From assembly GCA_001771935.1 (NCBI GenBank), contig MERD01000110.1:1-49628 (forward strand): DNA of 49,628 bases. Direction: 5' to 3'. The DNA is from Betaproteobacteria bacterium RIFCSPLOWO2_02_FULL_67_26. Lineage in GTDB: Bacteria; Pseudomonadota; Gammaproteobacteria; Burkholderiales; SG8-41. The translations under genes and the position numbers were made by a program. The notes beneath the pieces were generated by a model. That model had not been told where the DNA came from, searched no databases, and was given only the letters and a program-made list of their open reading frames with translations. Position 1 is the first letter of the stretch, and the number at the start of each line of letters is the position of its first letter. Positions 38,621 to 49,304 of the stretch are shown here, one piece after another.

Positions 38621-38716
38621 AAGGCACAAGGCACAAGGCACAAGGCATAAGGCACAAGAAGGCGCACGACCAGCCGGGTTTTTCCTTTTGCCTTTTGCCT
38701 TGTGACTTTTGCCTTC
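38621..38716. repeat. Heptad tandem array (GGCACAA units, then TTTTGCC units)
   Basis: aaggcacaaggcacaaggcacaaggcataaggcacaag ... ttttgccttttgccttgtgacttttgcc; period 7, halves partly complementary. Confidence 0.85.
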
Positions 38717-38778
38717 CGGCTATTGCCCCGTGCCGCGTTCGCCGGTATATAGTAAGCATCCCCCTGTGCAGGTGTCCC

Positions 38779-39291
38779 ATGAGCCGGGCTTTTACCAAGG
38801 AAAGCACCGATGATCTGGTGGCGGGCGAACTGCCCGAGCGCCCGGTTCCCGTGCATCCCAACTACGTGACGCCCCGGGGACTGGAGCAGCTGCAGGCGCG
38901 GGCGAAGGCCTTGCAGGGGGAGCACGAGAAACTGCTCGCGCAGGCGGAGGAGGACTCGGCGGCCAAGCAGAAGCTGCGCGAGATCGAGCGCGACCAGCGT
39001 TACCTGAAGGCCCAGCTCGAGCGCGCCGAGAGCGTGGACCCGGCCGGCCAGCCGCGGGACGAGGTGCACTTCGGCGCGGCGGTGACGATGCGCGGCGAGG
39101 ACGGCAAGGCGCACCGGTTCGCGATCGTCGGCGACGACGAGGCCGACGTCGCGGCCGGCCGCATCAGCTGGGCCTCTCCGCTCGCCAAGGCGATGATGGG
39201 CGCGCGGGTCGGCGACTCGGTCAAGTGGCACCGCCCGGCCGGAGACGCCGAGGTCGAGATCGTCGAGATCGCCTACCCCAGGAAATCGTGA
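38779..39291 (+). CDS. GreA/GreB family elongation factor-like protein
   Basis: HPNYVTPRGLEQLQARAKALQGEHEKLL...RDQRYLKAQLERAESVDP...VGDDEADVAAGRISWASPLAKAMMGARVGDSVKWHRP. Confidence 0.88.
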   Translation: MSRAFTKESTDDLVAGELPERPVPVHPNYVTPRGLEQLQARAKALQGEHEKLLAQAEEDSAAKQKLREIERDQRYLKAQLERAESVDPAGQPRDEVHFGAAVTMRGEDGKAHRFAIVGDDEADVAAGRISWASPLAKAMMGARVGDSVKWHRPAGDAEVEIVEIAYPRKS

Positions 39292-39363
39292 GTCGTGGAT
39301 CGTGGGTCGTGGATCGCGTTCTTGATCCCCTCACCGTTGACCGTTCACCGTTCGCCGTTCACG
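39286..39363. repeat. Two heptad arrays (TCGTGGN and CACCGTT)
   Basis: tcgtgagtcgtggatcgtgggtcgtggatcg and caccgttgaccgttcaccgttcgccgttcacg; the first begins in the upstream stop codon. Confidence 0.85.
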
Positions 39364-39367
39364 CGGT

Positions 39368-40288
39368 ATGACGTTCCTGTCATTGGTGGCGGCGCTGTTG
39401 CTGGAGCAGGCGTGGCCGCTGCGCCCGGGCAACCCCGTCCACGCCGGGTTCGGCCACTACGCGCTCTTCCTCGACGGCCGGTTGAACGGCGGCGGGCATC
39501 GCCACGGGCTGGTGGCCTGGATGCTCGCGGTATTGCCGTGCATCGCCGTCGCGGCGGCGGGGTATCACGTGCTCCACGGCGTGAGCCCGCTTGCCGGCTG
39601 GTTGTGGAACCTCGCGGTGCTCCACCTCACCATGGGCTTCCGCCAGTTCAGCCACTCGTTCACCGAAATCCAGCAGGCGCTGCGCGAGGGCGACCTGGCC
39701 CGGGCGCGCGAGCGGCTCGGCGGCTGGCGCGGGGAGTCCGCTTCCGAGCTGACCGCCGGCGAGATCGCGCGCGTGGCGATCGAGCAGGGGCTGCTCGCCT
39801 CCCACCGCCACGTGTTCGGCACCGTGTTCTGGTTCGTGGCGCTGGGACCGGCGGGCGCCGTGCTCTACCGCGCGTCCGCCGTGCTCGCGGATGCCTGGGG
39901 ACGGCGCGCCGACCCCGAATACGGCGAGTTCGGCCGCTTTGCCGCGCGCGCCTTCCACGGGCTCGACTGGCTGCCGGCGCGGATCACCGCGGCGAGCTTC
40001 GCCGTCGCCGGCGATTTCGAGGACGCGATCTATTGCTGGCGCACCCAGGCGGCGGCGTGGGCCGTGCCGGCGCACGGCGTCCTCCTCGCGAGCGGCGCCG
40101 GCGCGCTGGGGGTGCGCCTCGGCGACACCCTGCACCAGCACGGCAGCCTGCAGTTCCGTCCGGAGCTGGGCGTCGGCGACGAGGCGGACACGGACTTCAT
40201 GCAGAGCGCCACCGGCCTCATCTGGCGCGCGCTGGTGCTGTGGATGTTCCTGATCCTGCTCGTGAGCCTGGCTCACGCGCTCGGCTGA
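39368..40288 (+). CDS. CobD/CbiB-like membrane protein
   Basis: LLLEQAWPLRPGNPVHAGFGHYALFLDGRLNGG...FRQFSHSFTEIQQALREGDLARARERLGGW; hydrophobic segments. Confidence 0.8.
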   Translation: MTFLSLVAALLLEQAWPLRPGNPVHAGFGHYALFLDGRLNGGGHRHGLVAWMLAVLPCIAVAAAGYHVLHGVSPLAGWLWNLAVLHLTMGFRQFSHSFTEIQQALREGDLARARERLGGWRGESASELTAGEIARVAIEQGLLASHRHVFGTVFWFVALGPAGAVLYRASAVLADAWGRRADPEYGEFGRFAARAFHGLDWLPARITAASFAVAGDFEDAIYCWRTQAAAWAVPAHGVLLASGAGALGVRLGDTLHQHGSLQFRPELGVGDEADTDFMQSATGLIWRALVLWMFLILLVSLAHALG

Positions 40289-40488
40289 GCGCGCTGCGCG
40301 ATGCGCCGATTTTCCGCATCACCGTGGACCCCTCGCCGGACAACGGCCTGCGCCGCGTCTCGCAGGTCCAGGTCGACAAGGTGTTGACGGTGGCGCGGGA
40401 GCGCATCGGCGGCACGCCCGGCCGGCTGGACGACGCGACGATGCTCAAGGTCAACCGCTCGCTCGCGGTGTTCATCGGCATCGCCTGA
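40289..40488 (+). pseudogene. C-terminal fragment of a PemK/MazF-like toxin
   Basis: Frame reads ALRDAPIFRITVDPSPDNGLRRVSQVQVDKVLTVARERIGGTPGRLDDATMLKVNRSLAVFIGIA*, typical MazF/PemK C-terminus without an N-terminal half. Confidence 0.65.
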
Positions 40489-40503
40489 ACGCCTGCGAAC
40501 GGC

Positions 40504-40531
40504 GTGAAGGGTGAACAGTGAACGGTGAATT
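40504..40531. repeat. Heptad array GTGAACN x4
   Basis: gtgaagg gtgaaca gtgaacg gtgaatt; reverse-complement family of the array at 39332-39363. Confidence 0.85.
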
Positions 40532-40542
40532 ATTGCGCTGCG

Positions 40543-42417
<1,875 letters not shown>

Positions 42418-42462
42418 CGCAGCCGCTGCCAGTGACGAGATAAGGGTGACGAGCAACCAGAT

Positions 42463-42508
42463 CATCCTTCCGCCTTTCGCCTTCCAACTTTCGAGTTTTG
42501 CTTTCGGC
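42463..42508. repeat. Degenerate heptad array (CNNNCTT)
   Basis: catccttccgcctttcgccttccaactttcgagttttgctttcgg after the ABC-F gene. Confidence 0.65.
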
Positions 42509-42549
42509 CTCCGTCCGCGACCCGCCACTCACGCTCCATCAATCAGAGC

Positions 42550-43206
42550 TCAGCGCTTGCCGCGCTCGAGGTCCAGCTTCATCGCGGCGGCGGCGATCGG
42601 TTTCGCCCACTCCGGCGCCAACGCAAGATCGTTCGGGTTGAGTATCCTTCCACGTTCCGTGTGCAGTACCAGCGACGGAACCGGTGTATGGCCGTCGGCG
42701 GGGTCACCTTCCGCGCTGTTGTCATGGATACGTAATGCGGATAACCCGGGCAGCAGGGCAATCAGGTTCAGGCGGCTGCGCTCGAAGCGGCGGCGGATCA
42801 TTTCCTCGGGAATATCGTGACCGCCTCGACGCACGCGGGATCGCACGCGCTTGATGTGCAACTCCAGGCTGGCAAGGCCCACGTACCAGATATGGATATC
42901 GATGCCTTGCGCCGCCGCTTCAGCGAGCAGGCGTGGAATCGTGCTTCCGCCCAGAGTTGATTCAAACGCATAATCGAGGCGTTGCGTAATCGCCTGTCTG
43001 AGCAGGCCGCTTCCTTGCCGCCATGCGGCGCCGTTAGCGGTCGCCTGGTCCAGCCCGGGACTGGCGGTCATGAGCTCACGGGCTGCCTCGTCGGGATTGA
43101 AATACTCGCCGCCCAGGCTGCGGAAAGCAGCGCCGCCGATGCTGCTCTTGCCGGCGCCATTGACCCCGGCGATCACATAGAGGCGCGATGGCCGGGACGG
43201 TGGCAT
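42550..43206 (-). CDS. Zeta-toxin-like P-loop kinase
   Basis: RLYVIAGVNGAGKSSIGGAAF, YFNPDEAARELM, DYAFESTLGGSTIPRLLAEAAAQGIDIHIWYVGL, RVRRGGHDIPEEMIRRRFERSRLNL. Confidence 0.85.
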   Translation of the reverse strand: MPPSRPSRLYVIAGVNGAGKSSIGGAAFRSLGGEYFNPDEAARELMTASPGLDQATANGAAWRQGSGLLRQAITQRLDYAFESTLGGSTIPRLLAEAAAQGIDIHIWYVGLASLELHIKRVRSRVRRGGHDIPEEMIRRRFERSRLNLIALLPGLSALRIHDNSAEGDPADGHTPVPSLVLHTERGRILNPNDLALAPEWAKPIAAAAMKLDLERGKR

Positions 43207-43230
43207 CCGCGGGCTTTGCCCATCATCCGG

Positions 43231-43584
43231 CTAGCTGCGCTTGCGTGCTGCCTTGACCGCGGCGCGACCGAGCTCGGCGGGGGAGGCGTTGAACGCTGCC
43301 TTCATTCCTTTTCTTGCCTTCGGCGTTTGCATCCGGGCCAGCAGAACGCTGTATTCCGCGCTGAGGTCGTTCAGGTTGTGGGACCGCCCCCTGACCAGCG
43401 ACTGGAACTCGTCGTACGAGATCAGAACCGCCTTGGGTGTGTCGTGCCGGGTGATGGCGACCGCGCCGCCGCGGAGGGCCTGCTCGAGTACGGCCCCGAA
43501 CTCGTTCTTGAGGCGGGTAGCGGCGACGGCCGGGACATCGACCAGTTCGCCCTGGCTGTTGCGAAAAGTCAGAGTGGGGGGCAT
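43231..43584 (-). CDS. Phd/YefM-type antitoxin
   Basis: AATRLKNEFGAVLEQALRGGAVAITRHDTPKAVLISYDEFQSLV; upstream of the zeta-like gene. Confidence 0.8.
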   Translation of the reverse strand: MPPTLTFRNSQGELVDVPAVAATRLKNEFGAVLEQALRGGAVAITRHDTPKAVLISYDEFQSLVRGRSHNLNDLSAEYSVLLARMQTPKARKGMKAAFNASPAELGRAAVKAARKRS

Positions 43585-43603
43585 GGTGGGCCTCTCGAGA
43601 ATA

Positions 43604-43620
43604 TCGACTATTATAGTCGA
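43604..43620. promoter_or_regulatory. Palindromic operator over the -10 of the Phd/zeta module
   Basis: TCGACTA-tta-TAGTCGA; minus-strand TATAAT lies inside; 20 nt upstream of the ATG. Confidence 0.6.
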
Positions 43621-43716
43621 AATAGCCTATTTATCCATATTGGCCATTTTTGGCGGAGGCCGGCGTCGGGATCGCCCTCATCCTTCATCCTTAAGGCGTA
43701 GCCGTCCCATCACTCA

Positions 43717-43803
43717 TCACCGGGCCCTGAAGCCGCGAGGGCGGCAGAGCGCGAGAGGGAAAGATCCTTCTCACGACCTCCCGATCTGCCGGGTTTGGGG
43801 TCC
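43717..43803. repeat. Octad hairpin repeat, copy 1 (short)
   Basis: tcaccgggccctgaagccgcgagggcggcagagcgcgagagggaaagatccttctcacgacctcccgatctgccgggtttggggtcc; matches 44573-44709. Confidence 0.85.
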
Positions 43804-43980
43804 TTCCGCCTTCATCCTTCTGCCTTGGGGTGGCGTCAAGTCAACGTATCGGACCGCCCGGCGTTGAATCAGGGTAACGCCAGCATGAAGGCAAGCCATG
43901 GACCAGGGAATGCCGGCGGCGGGGCGCGCAGTGACTATCCCAATTAAGGTATAGTATGGGCCAGGCACCCGGTCAGTTGA

Positions 43981-44238
43981 AGCCGCTGGGCAAAGCCTCT
44001 GCATGGATTCGGTTCCGCCGGGGTTCTCGAGGTCGTTGAAGATTTTCGCGGCAATGCCTATCGTGCCGTGTACACGGTCCGGTTCGAGGAGCGGGTGTTC
44101 GTGCTGCACGTATTCCAGAAAAAGTCGAAGACCGGCATCGAGACACCGAAGCGGGACCGGGAATTGATACGGAAAAGACTGCAGGCAGCTGACAGGCGGG
44201 CGAAGGAGCTGAAAGATGAGCAAGCACAAGGCAAGTGA
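43981..44238 (+). pseudogene. Truncated HigB/RelE (Gp49-like) toxin
   Basis: Frame reads SRWAKPLHGFGSAGVLEVVEDFRGNAYRAVYTVRFEERVFVLHVFQKKSKTGIETPKRDRELIRKRLQAADRRAKELKDEQAQGK*; N-terminus lost (in-frame TGA at 43978, no ATG start in the fragment). Confidence 0.7.
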
Positions 44239-44560
44239 AAAAATCCCCGTAACTGCCGGGAGCGGGAACGTCTACGCCGATCTCGGCTATCCCGATGCGG
44301 ACGAGATGCTGGTCAAGGCCAGGCTCGTGATGGAGATATCCGGGATTATCCAGCGTCGTGGGCTCACCCAGGTCGAAGCGGCAAGGTTGCTGGGGCTCAC
44401 CCAGCCCAAAGTGTCGGCCATGCTCCGTGGCCAGTTTCGCGGCTTCTCGGAACGGAAGTTGATCGATTGCCTGACCAGCCTCGGACGCGACGTGCAGATC
44501 GTGATCAAGGAGCCATCCCGCCGCCGCACGAACGGCAAGCTCACCGTCGTTGTCGCCTGA
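44216..44560 (+). CDS. HigA-like XRE-family antitoxin
   Basis: LVMEISGIIQRRGLTQVEAARLLGLTQPKVSAMLRGQFRGFSERKLIDCLTSLGRDVQIVI. Confidence 0.88.
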   Translation: MSKHKASEKIPVTAGSGNVYADLGYPDADEMLVKARLVMEISGIIQRRGLTQVEAARLLGLTQPKVSAMLRGQFRGFSERKLIDCLTSLGRDVQIVIKEPSRRRTNGKLTVVVA

Positions 44561-44572
44561 CCCCTCACTGCG

Positions 44573-44709
44573 TCACCGGGCCCTGGAGCCGCGAGGGCGG
44601 CAGAGCGTGAGAGCGGCAGCATCCGTGAGGGCGGGAGCGCGCGAGAGCGGGAGAGGGAAAGATCCCTCTCACGACTTCCCGACCTGCCGATCTCCCGGGT
44701 TTGGGGTCC
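44573..44709. repeat. Octad hairpin repeat, copy 2 (expanded)
   Basis: Same ends as 43717-43803 with a ~50-bp internal purine-rich period-8 expansion; GAGAGGGA-aaga-TCCCTCTC at the tip. Confidence 0.85.
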
Positions 44710-44711
44710 CT

Positions 44712-44810
44712 CATCCCTCATCCCTCCGTCCCGGCCCGCTGCATCGTGCCGGGCGTTCGCCGGCTCGAACGTGCGCAGGCACGTTCTTCGAATTCCCGGC
44801 TCACTCCCTC
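44712..44810 (+). repeat. 99-bp direct repeat, copy A
   Basis: catccctcatccctccgtcccggcccgctgcatcgtgccgggcgttcgccggctcgaacgtgcgcaggcacgttcttcg...; 4 mismatches, no indels versus 49107-49205. Confidence 0.95.
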
Positions 44811-44868
44811 GGGCGGCGGGCTCGTAAGTCCCCGCCCGCGGCGGTATCCTAGTTGGCGGGGAGGCAGG

Positions 44869-45273
44869 ATGGTTCGCAAAGCGCCAGAAAACTCCAACTG
44901 CGTGTTTTGCTCCATCGCGCCTGACCAGATCCTCGTTGAGGGCCCGCTCGCGCTCGCGAAGCGCGACGGCCACCCGGTCAGCAAGGGCCACACGCTCATC
45001 ATCCCGCGCCGGCACGTGGCGTCGTTCTTTGAGACGACGGAGGAAGAGCGGCTGGCGATGCTGAAGCTGCTCGACGAGGCGAAAGCGCTGCTCGACCGTG
45101 AGCACCAGCCCGACGGCTACAACATCGGCATCAACAACGGCCCCGCGGCGGGGCAGACGGTGATGCACCTGCACATCCATCTCATTCCGCGCTATGCCGG
45201 CGACACCGCCGATGCGCGCGGGGGCGTGCGGTGGATCTTTCCGGACAAGGCGGCGTACTGGAAAGAGAAATGA
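44869..45273 (+). CDS. HIT family protein
   Basis: CVFCSIAPDQILVEGPLALAKRDGHPVSKGHTLIIPRRHVASF...GQTVMHLHIHLIPRY. Confidence 0.92.
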   Translation: MVRKAPENSNCVFCSIAPDQILVEGPLALAKRDGHPVSKGHTLIIPRRHVASFFETTEEERLAMLKLLDEAKALLDREHQPDGYNIGINNGPAAGQTVMHLHIHLIPRYAGDTADARGGVRWIFPDKAAYWKEK

Positions 45274-45331
45274 AAACCCCACTAACAGTAACGCGGAACT
45301 GGGGCCAGAACGGAGCCGGCCAGGCGCTGCC

Positions 45332-45592
45332 TCAGGCGGCGACGATTTGAATGCGAGCCGAGAATCCGAGCTGATGGAGCAACTGCTCGCAATCCGCCCA
45401 GGTCAGGCCGAAAGCACGCACGTCGGCGAGGCCGAGGCGCGACACGGCCGCCGAAATGGTGGGGGCATCCTGTTCCGCGAACTCGCCCTCCATCAAGGCG
45501 TTTTCGGCCCAATCCACCAGTTGCGCCTGCGTGATGTCATGGCGCAGGTAGGCCGCAATCTTGTCCGCAACGGTCTGTTTGGTGATCGTCAC
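45332..45592 (-). CDS. Small conserved protein, third gene of the DUF4258/YgiT module
   Basis: VTITKQTVADKIAAYLRHDITQAQLVDWAENALMEGEFAEQDAPTISAAVSRLGLADVRAFGLTWADCEQLLHQLGFSARIQIVAA; GTG start assumed at 45592. Confidence 0.65.
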   Translation of the reverse strand: MTITKQTVADKIAAYLRHDITQAQLVDWAENALMEGEFAEQDAPTISAAVSRLGLADVRAFGLTWADCEQLLHQLGFSARIQIVAA

Positions 45593-45629
45593 AAACCCAC
45601 TTTCAAGCTTCTCGAACAAAACAACCGAA

Positions 45630-45860
45630 TCAAACCATTGCGAAGACGTCCATGGGAACGGTACGGACAGGGCGCCCCTCGCCGTGGACGAGCCTGCGCG
45701 CTTTTTCGGTGGTGGCGCGGGAAAAAGTTGCCTCGCCGCAACGCTCACACACCTGCGCCGGGATACGCTCGACCAGTACGCGGCGCCCATCGACCGTGAA
45801 CACCTCGCTCACGAGATCCTCGCGCGCAGCGGTGCCGCCACAGACATGACATTTGAACAT
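45630..45860 (-). CDS. YgiT-type zinc finger (MqsA-like antitoxin N-domain)
   Basis: MFKCHVCGGTAAREDLVSEVFTVDGRRVLVERIPAQVCERCGEATFSRATTEKARRLV. Confidence 0.88.
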   Translation of the reverse strand: MFKCHVCGGTAAREDLVSEVFTVDGRRVLVERIPAQVCERCGEATFSRATTEKARRLVHGEGRPVRTVPMDVFAMV

Positions 45861-45862
45861 GG

Positions 45863-46171
45863 CTACCTCCGTTTACGGTGCTCGATCCACTCGCTCGGAT
45901 CCGGTTCGTAAATCGTGATGATCTTCGCGAGAGCAGTGTCGCCAAACGTTACTTGAAAGTGCAGGGCGCGTCCAGCAGCACTAAATCCCAGCAGCAACGC
46001 GCTTGGCGCATACTTGTCATCCGGGTAATCCTCGATCAGTTCGGCAGATGCTCCAGCCTCGCGAATCTCCTGCTCGCTGATATTGCGCTCCACGGCGCGG
46101 CGGAAGGCGTGGCGGCTGAACTCGAACTCGCCCGCGACTAACCGCTGCCTCACATCATCTAGTGCCTTCAT
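45863..46171 (-). CDS. DUF4258 family (putative toxin)
   Basis: MKALDDVRQRLVAGEFEFSRHAFRRAVERNISEQEIREAGASAELIEDYPDDKYAPSALLLGFSAAGRALHFQVTF. Confidence 0.82.
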   Translation of the reverse strand: MKALDDVRQRLVAGEFEFSRHAFRRAVERNISEQEIREAGASAELIEDYPDDKYAPSALLLGFSAAGRALHFQVTFGDTALAKIITIYEPDPSEWIEHRKRR

Positions 46172-46263
46172 GGATTCACATTGTCTACTGGCAACCCGGT
46201 CGCGTCGACCGTAAACTCTTCCCAATGGCCGAATTTCTTCTCGTTTTGCGCCCGGGTACTCAT
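46168..46263 (-). other. Possible 31-aa leader/remnant ORF, ATGA-coupled to DUF4258
   Basis: MSTRAQNEKKFGHWEEFTVDATGLPVDNVNP*; stop overlaps the DUF4258 start. Confidence 0.35.
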
Positions 46264-46265
46264 CT

Positions 46266-47333
46266 GTGCGTCCACCTTTAGCGCGCGAAGGGTCGGCCCG
46301 GTTGACCTCGATTTCCGGGTCCGCGGAGCTGGAGTTCCTGACCAGGCTCCAGCGCATCCTGGGCGAAGGGCTGTTCAGCGCCAGCTACAAGTACGCCTTG
46401 CTGCTCTCCCTCGCCGAGCTGAGCATCGAACAATCCATCGCGCCCGATGGCACGTTGCGAATCGAGTTGGACGAGCTGGCCGAGCGATTCATCACGCTGT
46501 ACTGGCGGCAGGTTGCTCCGTTCAAAGGCCGGATCCTGGCTCAAAACGCCGGTCGCCAGGCCAGCATCATCAGCAAGATTTCGGCGTTCAAGTCCGCGGC
46601 ACCGACGCTCGCCGTTGCGCGAAATCGCACGCAGTGGCCGCGCTTGGTTCGCGAAGTCGGCCGGCTGCTGGTGGAAATGCCGCTGTGGAAACTCCAGCGG
46701 GTAGGTGAGGAGCGGCTGGACTTTCTCTATGAAGAACGTCTCGTCGACCGCGGCATCGTCCTGCGGCCCGGAATTGCAGCCTGCTTCCGCTCGCAGTTCC
46801 CTATCGTGCAGGCCCTGGTCCAGACGGCCTGGTTGTCATTCGTTCAGCGGCTGCCGCTGAACCGGTCGATCCTGGGCCCAACCAGCGAGTTGGGCGAATT
46901 CCTGTTTGGCAGCGAGCGGTCAGGGCTGAAACTGGTCGCCGACGGGTTGCGGAATGTGCAAGGCGGATCCTGCTTCTATTGTATGGAGCGGATTCGCGAT
47001 GGGGGAGCGGTGGACCACTTCATTCCGTGGTCGCGCTACCCGTTAGACCTCGGCCACAACTTCGTGCTCACGCACGCATCGTGCAACCAGGATAAGCGGG
47101 ACATGTTGGCGGCCACAGGTCATCTTCAGCGATGGCTCGAGCGCAATGACACTCAAGCAGCAGTTCTCGATGAGATATTCGACGCCGCCCGCTTTCCGTT
47201 CGACGCGGATGCTTCGTTGAGCGTTGCGGAATGGGCTTACGAGAACGCCGAGCGGGCGGGGGCGTTGGTTTGGGTCAGGCGCAACGGCCAAACCTCGCGC
47301 CTGACAGCGGAGTGGCGGGGGTGTTTCAAGTAG
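46266..47333 (+). CDS. HNH endonuclease domain protein
   Basis: CFYCMERIRDGGAVDHFIPWSRYPLDLGHNFVLTHASCNQDKRD is an HNH core; ~250-aa N-terminal helical domain. Start may be TTG at 46302. Confidence 0.85.
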   Translation: MRPPLAREGSARLTSISGSAELEFLTRLQRILGEGLFSASYKYALLLSLAELSIEQSIAPDGTLRIELDELAERFITLYWRQVAPFKGRILAQNAGRQASIISKISAFKSAAPTLAVARNRTQWPRLVREVGRLLVEMPLWKLQRVGEERLDFLYEERLVDRGIVLRPGIAACFRSQFPIVQALVQTAWLSFVQRLPLNRSILGPTSELGEFLFGSERSGLKLVADGLRNVQGGSCFYCMERIRDGGAVDHFIPWSRYPLDLGHNFVLTHASCNQDKRDMLAATGHLQRWLERNDTQAAVLDEIFDAARFPFDADASLSVAEWAYENAERAGALVWVRRNGQTSRLTAEWRGCFK

Positions 47334-47485
47334 GACTTGGCCTTTGCCTCATCCTTTGAATTGCGGTCTTTTCATTTAATCCTTAATCGCCTGGTTGCCG
47401 TGTAAACCCGGGAGGCCTGACGCACGTTGTTCCCGTCAGGAGGCTTCCATGGGCGGCAAGGGCGAACACGCGGCTGGATTCAGCC

Positions 47486-47515
47486 TTGTCATATCATATC
47501 ACCAAGTGATATAAT
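47486..47515 (+). promoter_or_regulatory. Promoter/operator of the RelE/HigA-like module
   Basis: TTGTCA-N18-TATAAT overlapped by ATATCAC-caa-GTGATAT (47496-47512), ATG at 47518. Confidence 0.65.
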
Positions 47516-47517
47516 TC

Positions 47518-47925
47518 ATGCCTGCGAATCCGCGCCCGTTTCGCATTCTGAAGGCCCGGACTTTCGCCCGCTGGACAAAACGCGAGGGCCTGGCCGACGG
47601 CGAGCTGGCCGGCGCGGTGTCGGAGATGAAAGAGGGCCTGATCGATGCGCGTCTGGGAGGCGGAGTCTTCAAGAAGCGCATTGCAAAGCGAGGGCAGGGA
47701 AAGAGCGGTGGCTATCGGATGATCCTCGCCTCCAACCTCGGCGACCGGTGGGTCTTCATGTTCGGTTTTGCAAAGAACGAGCGCGACAACATCGATGACA
47801 AGGAACTGAAGCTGATAAAGGATCTCGCGTCGGTCTACCTGGCAATGGACGAGCCGATGCTGAAGCGGGCGATTACCGCGGGAGAACTGGTGGAGATACG
47901 GCATGGCAAACAAGAGACTGCGTGA
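47518..47925 (+). CDS. RelE/HigB-type toxin (HigB2-like)
   Basis: FARWTKREGLADGELAGAVSEMKEGLIDARLGGGVFKKRIAKRGQGKSGGYRMILASNLGDRWVFMFGFAKNERDNIDDKEL. Confidence 0.87.
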   Translation: MPANPRPFRILKARTFARWTKREGLADGELAGAVSEMKEGLIDARLGGGVFKKRIAKRGQGKSGGYRMILASNLGDRWVFMFGFAKNERDNIDDKELKLIKDLASVYLAMDEPMLKRAITAGELVEIRHGKQETA

Positions 47926-48211
47926 AGCGCTGTATGAGACTGCGCGGGGGCTGTATGACATCGGCGCAATGGGTGCTGAGACGCTGCGGGAATTCGACGC
48001 GTCGCGATTGCGTCCTCTCAAGCCGTTCCGGGCGGCGGACATCAAGCAACTGCGGCTCAAGGCCAAGGCGAGCCAGGCGGTGTTTGCCGCCTATCTCAAT
48101 ATCAGCGTCTCGACCGTTCAGAAGTGGGAGATCGGGGAGAAGTCCCCGGGCGGGCCGGCGCTGAAGCTGCTCAATATCGTGGAGCGCAAGGGGCTTAAAG
48201 CGCTTGTTTGA
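47903..48211 (+). CDS. NadS/HigA2-like XRE antitoxin
   Basis: LRPLKPFRAADIKQLRLKAKASQAVFAAYLNISVSTVQKWEIGEKSPGGPALKLLNIVERKGL; overlaps the toxin gene. Confidence 0.88.
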   Translation: MANKRLREALYETARGLYDIGAMGAETLREFDASRLRPLKPFRAADIKQLRLKAKASQAVFAAYLNISVSTVQKWEIGEKSPGGPALKLLNIVERKGLKALV

Positions 48212-48274
48212 GCTGCGCTTGCGTGGCCCCGTTGGTCGTCAGTAAGTCTCCCGCGCAACGGGGGGGTTGGCTCC

Positions 48275-48363
48275 CATCACTCATCACCCATCACCGGGGT
48301 TGAAGCCCCTTCGCCATCAGGCGGAGCCGCCCCGGGCACTTCCGACTTTCGACTTTCGCCTTA
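48275..48363. repeat. Heptad arrays CATCACN and CGACTTT
   Basis: catcactcatcacccatcacc ... cgactttcgactttcgcctta between TA modules. Confidence 0.8.
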
Positions 48364-48443
48364 AGGTTGGCGGGGCGGGGTGTAAAATGCTGCCTGGGGA
48401 GCGTGGCTGGAATTCATGAAGCGCTGCAAACGGAGAATTGCCA

Positions 48444-48674
48444 ATGAAAAAATTCGACCGGATCACGTCGGATCCCGCCATCCTGGGCGGACAGCCCACC
48501 ATTCGCGGCATGCGCCTGACCGTGCGCCGGGTGGTGGAGGCGTTGGCGTTGTACCCCAACTGGGACGACTTGCGGGTGGAGTATCCCGAACTCGAGCCCG
48601 ATGACATCCGGCAGGCGCTCGAGTTCGCGGCCAGCAACCTCGACGATAAAATCATACCGTTCGAGACGGCTTGA
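48444..48674 (+). CDS. DUF433 family antitoxin
   Basis: MKKFDRITSDPAILGGQPTIRGMRLTVRRVVEALALYPNWDDLRVEYPELEPDDIRQALEFA. Confidence 0.9.
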   Translation: MKKFDRITSDPAILGGQPTIRGMRLTVRRVVEALALYPNWDDLRVEYPELEPDDIRQALEFAASNLDDKIIPFETA

Positions 48675-49051
48675 CTCGCCTCCTGCTGGATCAGGGCCTT
48701 CCCCGTTCCACTGCCAGGCTGCTCGCGGCCGCGGGCTGGGACGTCGCCCATGTCGGGGACATCGGGTTGAGCCGCGCTGAAGATTTGCAGATTCTCGAGC
48801 ATGCGCGTGAGCAGGGCAGAACCTGCGTGACGCTCGATGCCGACTTTCACGCGCTTCTTGCAACAAGCGAAGCGAAATCACCTTCCGCGATTCGTATTCG
48901 CAGGGAAGGGTTGAATGGGAAGGCGATCAGTGATCTTCTTCTCAAGGTCTGGCCGGACATAGAATCCGCCGTGAATGAAGGAGCGCTCGTTACCATCACC
49001 GCGCGATCGGTGCGGGTCAGGGCGCTTCCGGTCACCACGAAGAAAACCTAG
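48671..49051 (+). CDS. DUF5615 PIN-like toxin
   Basis: TRLLLDQGLPRSTARLLAAAGWDVAHVGDIGLSRAEDLQILEHAREQGRTCVTLDADFHALLA; TTG start overlapping the DUF433 stop. Confidence 0.9.
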   Translation: MTRLLLDQGLPRSTARLLAAAGWDVAHVGDIGLSRAEDLQILEHAREQGRTCVTLDADFHALLATSEAKSPSAIRIRREGLNGKAISDLLLKVWPDIESAVNEGALVTITARSVRVRALPVTTKKT

Positions 49052-49053
49052 GC

Positions 49054-49106
49054 TCATCCCTCATCCCTCGGGATATCCCTCATCCCTCATCCCTCATCCC
49101 TCGGGG
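49054..49106. repeat. Heptad array TCATCCC
   Basis: tcatccctcatccctcgggatatccctcatccctcatccctcatccctcgggg, leading into direct repeat copy B. Confidence 0.9.
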
Positions 49107-49205
49107 CATCCCTCATCCCTCCGTCCCGGCCCGCTGCATCGTGCCGGGCGTTCGCCGGCTCTAACGTGCGCAGGCACGTTATTCGAAACCCCGGCTCACT
49201 CCCTC
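49107..49205 (+). repeat. 99-bp direct repeat, copy B
   Basis: 95/99 identical to 44712-44810; AACGTGC-gcag-GCACGTT hairpin conserved. Confidence 0.95.
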
Positions 49206-49269
49206 AGAAATCGGCCTCCGGGCGATTTCTTGTAGGGTTTTTCCTGACACGCCTCACCGGTTTTCAGCA

Positions 49270-49304
49270 CTTCTGCCTTCATCCTTCTGATTTCTGCCTT
49301 CGCG
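49270..49304. repeat. Heptad array CTTCTGC
   Basis: cttctgc cttcatc cttctga tttctgc cttcgcg. Confidence 0.75.

What the first reader, a model, noticed from the sequence alone, without database searches (positions are those of the whole stretch)
38621..49304. Family of degenerate period-7 tandem arrays with changing heptamer units at gene boundaries
At least ten separate spots carry 3-6 consecutive 7-nt units: GGCACAA/TTTTGCC (38.6 kb), TCGTGGN and CACCGTT (39.3), GTGAACN (40.5), GGCACAA (42.1), CNNNCTT (42.46), CATCCTT (43.68, 43.80), TCATCCC (44.71, 49.05), CATCACN and CGACTTT (48.3), CTTCTGC (49.27). The period is always 7 while the unit differs, and nearly all sit between genes. I found no such arrays in the first 38 kb. 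Cyanobacterial short tandemly repeated repetitive (STRR) heptamers are the closest known analogue, but the generating mechanism here is unknown to me.
Basis: seen in the sequence. Interest (0 to 1): 0.8.

Follow-up and report, generated by a model that had tools for sequence, protein, structure and literature searches.

The report
Seven-base repeat hairpins between bacterial genes
The gaps between many genes of this bacterium are filled by short runs of a seven-letter DNA word facing a mirror-image run of the same word, and related species keep the mirror pair at the same place while the word itself changes, which extends a little-studied class of bacterial repeats and suggests that the paired form, not the sequence, is what persists.

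Summary
The arrays are real (8 strong period-7 runs against 0.15 expected in 38.6-49.6 kb). They are not special to this accessory stretch: the genome sample carries about 1.4 per 10 kb with 34 unit types, also between core genes (fis-purH, leuS-lptE, petC-sspA, greB-cobD). Many form inverted pairs: a purine-rich array (often TGANNNN, starting at the stop codon of the gene) on the left edge of the gap, and its reverse-complement type on the right. Arms within one gap match each other as inverted copies (0 of 5000 permutations, in three species) and not as direct copies. At five orthologous gaps, species of the genus keep a hairpin of heptamers but with different units, and native arms pair better than cross-species arms; a few species have an empty gap of 3-6 nt. 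Stems show no G-U preference and no T-tract, so selection as an RNA terminator is unsupported. Best reading: heptameric simple repeats of the Xanthomonas/Nostoc kind (Rehm 2015), homogenised at the DNA level by 7-nt slippage plus hairpin-dependent repair, tolerated at gene 3' ends. New here are the many unit types, the unit turnover at fixed positions and the arm coevolution. Mechanism inferred, not shown.

The parts
38621..38658 (+). left arm, (AAGGCAC)n, 5.4 units, 11 nt after the stop of the patatin-like gene
   Evidence: TRF; scan
38679..38715 (-). right arm, (TTTTGCC)n, reverse-complement partner of 38621-38658; inverted score 25, direct 2
39286..39316 (+). left arm, (TCGTGGN)n, its first TGA is the stop codon of the GreA/GreB-family gene
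39331..39362 (-). right arm, (TCACCGT)n, 5-7 nt before the cobD/cbiB start; only loosely matched to the left arm (inverted 4, direct 6)
   Evidence: orthologues
40504..40529 (+). single array (GTGAACN)n before the ABC-F gene
42061..42094 (+). period-8 array CGGGAGAG x4.2 inside the ABC-F ORF linker
   Evidence: Pfam CTD at residues 554-622
42092..42131 (+). (CAAGGCA)n array inside the ABC-F ORF linker
42466..42493 (-). CCTTCCG/CCTTTCG/CCTTCCA heptamers
43678..43692 (-). two TCATCCT units, weak
43801..43825 (-). CTTCCGC/CTTCATC/CTTCTGC, about 3 units
44593..44655 (+). period-8 degenerate array GAGAGCGN, of a dispersed family with about 30 matching places in the genome
44707..44726 (-). (TCCCTCA)n followed by a 112-nt dispersed repeat (44712-44823)
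48273..48295 (-). (CCCATCA)n
48338..48362 (-). (ACTTTCG)n
49053..49121 (-). (CTCATCC)n in a 33-nt higher-order repeat, followed by the second copy of the 112-nt repeat (49107-49218)
49267..49301 (-). TTCTGCC/TTCATCC/TTCTGAT/TTCTGCC, 4 units

Best explanation
The arrays are heptamer-built arms, often paired as inverted repeats (hairpins), that fill gaps between genes. Shown: period 7; many unit families in one genome; convergent polarity (TGANNNN at the left edge, NNNNTCA at the right edge); arm matching within a gap as inverted copies; the same gap occupied in sister species by a hairpin with another unit; occasional empty gaps; avoidance of divergent (promoter) gaps. Inferred: units spread along an arm by 7-nt replication slippage, and the opposite arm is kept complementary by a hairpin-dependent DNA process (template switching or repair in the palindrome), so each locus evolves in concert on its own; arrays survive where they do least harm, at gene 3' ends, and units that carry a stop codon are favoured there because 7 mod 3 = 1 puts a stop in every frame within 21 nt.
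For: Inverted arm matching 0/5000 permutations in each of three species, direct matching at chance. Orthologous gaps with changed units: greB-cobD, aroE, leuS-lptE, fis-purH (GAGGATT in four species, CAGGATT on both arms in two others), petC-sspA. Native arms pair better than cross-species arms at all five loci (166, 5, 6, 20, 17 of 5000). Empty gaps: TAA-N6-ATG at aroE in G005 and G006, TGA-GAC-ATG at petC-sspA in G006. Hairpins in 76/562 co-directional, 19/76 convergent, 5/146 divergent gaps (summed). Polarity: left half TGA 104 to 39, right half TCA 92 to 35, none in divergent gaps (summed). TGA at +7/+14/+21 of TGA stops 46/42/26 against 10.4, weaker at -7/-14. No strand bias in stem mismatches, G-U 68 to A-C 59, as expected of a DNA-level process. 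Array tolerated in a protein linker (42.06-42.13 kb). Heptamers are reported as the commonest long simple repeat in most prokaryotes, with a polymerase-contact slippage hypothesis (Mrazek 2007, as cited in PMC4679880 and PMC4692102).
Against: Unit order is not shared between the two arms (82 pairs, native minus permuted -0.26, p = 0.10), so copying of whole arms in one recent step is not seen. No strain-level genomes were available, so no birth or conversion event was observed directly. Persistence at the same gaps with compensating arms over wide divergence is also what selection for a hairpin would give, and in genera without arrays the petC-sspA gap can hold an ordinary terminator-like hairpin. 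Many arrays (more than half in the own genome) have no detected partner.
Confidence: 0.5

Rival explanations
1. Selected RNA hairpins: the paired arrays act as bidirectional 3' structures (termination, mRNA protection or coupling of stop and next start); heptamer repetition makes the stem tolerant to slippage.
For: Association with gene 3' ends rises with the number of 3' ends in the gap, 3.4%, 13.5%, 25%; the hairpin starts a median of 5 nt after the stop; arms compensate between species; petC-sspA holds a terminator-like hairpin in genera without arrays.
Against: No G-U excess over A-C in stems (44 to 40; 68 to 59); mean 2.06 T in the 10 nt after the hairpin, so no U-tract; sister species do without it at the same junction; several lie between tightly spaced co-directional genes where a terminator would be harmful.
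Confidence: 0.27
2. Mobile element ends: the arrays are termini of MITE- or REP-like elements that inserted between genes.
For: Empty gaps in some species; a 112-nt repeat in two window copies (third partial copy in C58) and the dispersed octamer family adjoin TCCCTCA arrays.
Against: Loops are unique and arms differ from gap to gap; the same gap keeps a related unit type across species at two loci (aroE, fis-purH), i.e. inheritance rather than fresh insertion; no target duplication noticed by eye (not tested systematically).
Confidence: 0.13
3. Selection for stop codons in all frames at gene ends produced TGANNNN arrays directly.
For: TGA is the most enriched trinucleotide at period 7 (43-fold) and the stop is preferentially the first unit.
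Against: Arrays without stops (AAGGCAN, GTTTCGA, TCGTTTC) behave the same; arrays before start codons have TCA in the sense strand; arms pair. The title of PMC6764699 states that eubacteria show no evidence for selected fail-safe 3' additional stop codons (seen, title and abstract only).
Confidence: 0.05
4. G-quadruplex elements as proposed for Xanthomonas and Nostoc.
For: TGAGGGA and GTGATGGG units have G-tracts at 7-nt spacing.
Against: Only 16 of 117 intergenic arrays hold a four-tract G3 motif and 61 have no GGG on the G-rich strand.
Confidence: 0.05

Closest known systems
GGGNATC heptameric repeats of Xanthomonas and GGGGAYT of Nostoc (Rehm 2015, PMC4692102)
   Same: Heptamers, intergenic, about 4 units, G-rich strand sense after stops and antisense before starts, overlap with stop codons, inverted pairs (70 cases in Xcc), rare between divergent genes, conserved gene context between species.
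   Different: One G-rich consensus there, 34 unit consensus types here; most here cannot form a G-quadruplex; here the unit changes between species at the same gap with compensating arms, which the sections of that paper that I read do not report.
TAACTGA direct repeats of marine Beggiatoaceae (MacGregor 2015, PMC4679880)
   Same: Heptamers with stop codons at gene boundaries; stops constrain orientation at gene ends.
   Different: Single unit, mostly just upstream of starts, one indirect repeat among 169 sets there; many units and inverted pairs here.
Cyanobacterial STRR heptamers (cited as three tandem heptanucleotides of Calothrix in PMC4692102; original not read)
   Same: Tandem heptamers, several types per genome.
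   Different: Inverted pairing and unit turnover not described in what I could read; host lineage differs.
Heptanucleotide long simple sequence repeats across prokaryotes (Mrazek 2007, as cited in PMC4679880 and PMC4692102)
   Same: Excess of period 7; slippage proposed.
   Different: A survey of long repeats; degenerate arrays with changing units would probably be missed (inference).
Intrinsic terminators and REP/MITE palindromes
   Same: Intergenic hairpins at gene 3' ends.
   Different: No U-tract, no conserved sequence across copies.

Membership tests
Xanthomonas/Nostoc-type intergenic heptamer repeats | period 7, intergenic excess | tested here: met
Xanthomonas/Nostoc-type intergenic heptamer repeats | G-rich strand sense after stop, antisense before start | tested here: met
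Xanthomonas/Nostoc-type intergenic heptamer repeats | frequent convergent inverted pairs | tested here: met
Xanthomonas/Nostoc-type intergenic heptamer repeats | consensus GGGANTN or GGGGAYT | tested here: not met
   34 unit types, none of the common ones is that consensus
Xanthomonas/Nostoc-type intergenic heptamer repeats | G-quadruplex-forming | tested here: not met
   16/117 carry the motif; no biophysics possible
TAACTGA repeats of Beggiatoaceae | unit TAACTGA, just upstream of start codons, direct only | tested here: not met
   unit list; positions
Cyanobacterial STRR | cyanobacterial host and published STRR units | tested here: inconclusive
   SspA of this genome is 68% identical to Neisseria and at most 47% to the other records listed, so not a cyanobacterium; STRR unit sequences not compared
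Intrinsic terminators | hairpin followed by a U-tract | tested here: not met
   2.06 T per 10 nt
Intrinsic terminators | G-U pairs preferred to A-C in sense stems | tested here: not met
   68 to 59, p = 0.48; non-heptamer hairpins 89 to 62, p = 0.03
REP/MITE | conserved sequence over many copies | tested here: not met
   unique loops, differing arms
REP/MITE | associated transposase | not tested
   no genome-wide search for RAYT or transposases was made

The most novel reading that the evidence does not exclude
A general bacterial class of self-renewing intergenic palindromes: arms made of 7-nt units that are continuously rewritten yet kept complementary, so that hairpin form and position are inherited while sequence is not. 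TGA-heptamers with a nearby inverted partner also occur in Bacteroidota, Verrucomicrobia, Chlorobi, Chloroflexi, Acidobacteria and others (25 of 118 loci against 1 after shuffling), pointing to a shared replication-linked mechanism or a shared gene-end function.
Probability: 0.3. Interest if true: 0.8.

Novelty: new variant of a known kind. Interest (0 to 1): 0.55.

Why it matters
Why heptamers dominate long simple repeats in bacteria has been open since 2007, and the function of the Xanthomonas repeats is unknown. The genus studied here gives a natural experiment: the same gaps, many units, compensating arms and empty sites. It makes the choice between mutational origin and selected hairpin directly testable, and warns that degenerate arrays may escape exact-repeat surveys. 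It may also matter for gene calling, as arrays can set stop codons and enter protein linkers.

Tried and rejected
Accessory-island marker: rejected, arrays lie between core genes genome-wide. Rho utilisation site (C-rich sense with YC every 7 nt): first idea; rejected as a general account because the array next to the stop is purine-rich in sense. G-quadruplex: 16/117. Whole-arm template copying: unit order not preserved. Sense-RNA selection by the G-U test: no signal, with limited power. Fail-safe stops: do not explain stop-free units or the 5' side. Assembly artefact: unlikely, since the arrangement recurs in independent genomes at orthologous gaps. Gene calls are my own codon-model calls, so some starts and small genes will be wrong.

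Full report
Observation. The window holds the arrays described. Period-7 runs of four or more units number 8 in 38.6-49.6 kb against 0.15 expected, with nothing comparable at periods 9 to 15; TRF agrees. A pattern of about three CTCATCC units has 119 hits in the own genome and none for the reversed control, and TGAN4 x4 has 171 against 10. In 769 kb of sampled genome the excess is specific to period 7 outside genes (67 intergenic arrays, a few of them runs of N; one in simulated sequence), TGA being the most enriched trinucleotide at that period, 43-fold. In 1.17 Mb there are about 165 arrays, 1.41 per 10 kb; among 117 intergenic arrays there are 34 unit consensus types. The finding's stretch is the densest sampled, yet array-free gaps of 34-54 kb are common elsewhere, so the contrast with the first 38 kb is not a border between core and accessory DNA.

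Anatomy. In a gap between genes the left edge carries a purine-rich array and the right edge its complement. Counting two-unit matches, the left half has TGA 104 to 39, the right half TCA 92 to 35, and divergent gaps show no polarity. When two arrays share a gap they match as inverted copies: observed 12.2, 13.7 and 13.1 against permuted 7.0, 7.6 and 7.8 in three species, 0 of 5000 permutations each, while direct matching is at chance. Typical paired gaps are 76-120 bp: arm of about 30, loop of about 20-30, arm of about 30, with arms close to the stop of one gene and the start of the next. Loops are unrelated between gaps. Behind TGA stops, TGA recurs at +7, +14 and +21 (46, 42, 26 against 10.4), less so at -7 and -14, so the stop is preferentially the first unit. 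69 of 117 arrays carry TGAN4TGA on one strand.

Comparison of species. The genus members searched share 60-73% identity with the window's cobD protein, so gaps are expected to be saturated with change. At greB-cobD the gap starts at the stop and holds GTGGATC-type units in this genome, GTGAATA in G009, GTGATCC in G005, GTAAGCG in G001, TCAGCNN in G007, with matching right arms in most; G002 and G003 look decayed. At aroE the units are GTTTCGA (own), GTTTCAA (G004, G007), GTTCAAR (G001, G003, G008), while G005 and G006 have only TAA-N6-ATG. fis-purH has GAGGATT in four species and CAGGATT on both arms in two; leuS-lptE and petC-sspA behave alike, the latter empty in G006. Native arms pair better than arms taken from another species at all five loci (166, 5, 6, 20, 17 of 5000 permutations). 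Across the family, petC-sspA holds heptamer hairpins in members of genera g3, g4, g5, g7 and g9, terminator-like hairpins in g6 and g2, and 13-16 nt including the stop codon in g8 and G030.

What it does. Hairpin-bearing gaps are 3.4% of divergent, 13.5% of co-directional and 25% of convergent gaps (sums over three species): the association follows gene 3' ends. That suits both tolerance (promoters are spared) and a 3' function. Two tests of an RNA role were negative: stems show G-U 68 to A-C 59, and there is no T-tract. Non-heptamer hairpins in such gaps show 89 to 62, p = 0.03. The test has limited power for long stems. Whole-arm copying was also tested: unit order is not shared between arms, so arms share a unit family rather than a recent copy. 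I therefore favour a DNA-level process, slippage in 7-nt steps plus hairpin-dependent homogenisation, at 0.5, with a selected RNA hairpin at 0.27. Steps shown: period, pairing, turnover, position. Steps inferred: slippage, conversion, neutrality.

Known context. Rehm 2015 (PMC4692102) describes in Xanthomonas and Nostoc the same period, orientation rule, stop overlap, inverted pairs and conserved gene context, for one G-rich unit, function unknown. MacGregor 2015 (PMC4679880) describes TAACTGA heptamers in Beggiatoaceae and summarises Mrazek 2007, in which heptamers are the commonest long simple repeats and slippage tied to a 7-nt polymerase contact is proposed. The present case differs by its many units, the unit turnover at fixed positions and the coevolving arms. 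It is a new variant of a known kind. TGA heptamers with an inverted partner also turn up in many phyla (25 of 118 loci).

Limits. The sample is about a third of the genome and was drawn from contigs known to hold at least one unit; genes were called by my own codon model; the lineage (betaproteobacterial, order Burkholderiales in GTDB) is inferred from SspA similarity to Neisseria (68%) and not from a named record. Only open-access papers could be searched, so an earlier description in a subscription journal may exist.

Noticed in passing
window 42061-42131: A period-8 array and an AAGGCAC heptamer array lie in frame inside the ABC-F ATPase ORF, in the linker before its C-terminal domain: arrays can enter protein linkers.
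   Followed up: partly
window 44593-44697 and 43734-43790: Degenerate octamer family (GAGAGCGN) with an apparent inverted partner (CTTCCCGA/CCTGCCGA); 39 BLAST matches to the 44.57-44.83 kb query in the own genome, most of them to the octamer part.
   Followed up: partly
window 44712-44823 and 49107-49218: A 112-nt direct repeat, 91% identical, attached to TCCCTCA arrays; a third partial copy in G000:C58.
   Followed up: partly
window 42550-49051: A run of small accessory genes: zeta-toxin-like AAA, Phd/YefM antitoxin, HTH_37 protein, HIT, HNH, DUF5615/PIN-like, i.e. toxin-antitoxin-type modules, many separated by arrays.
   Followed up: no
L059:12640-18390 (G000:C104): A repeat-rich stretch with at least seven heptamer arrays that my gene caller joined into one doubtful ORF.
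   Followed up: no
L348, L350-L354 (petC-sspA gap, genus g6): In a genus without arrays there, the gap holds a conserved GGGGCCGTG...CACGGCCCC hairpin, several copies followed by TTTGTT, looking like an ordinary terminator.
   Followed up: partly
L191 (G007 greB-cobD gap): A roughly 200-nt nested set of strong inverted repeats lies between the two heptamer arms.
   Followed up: no
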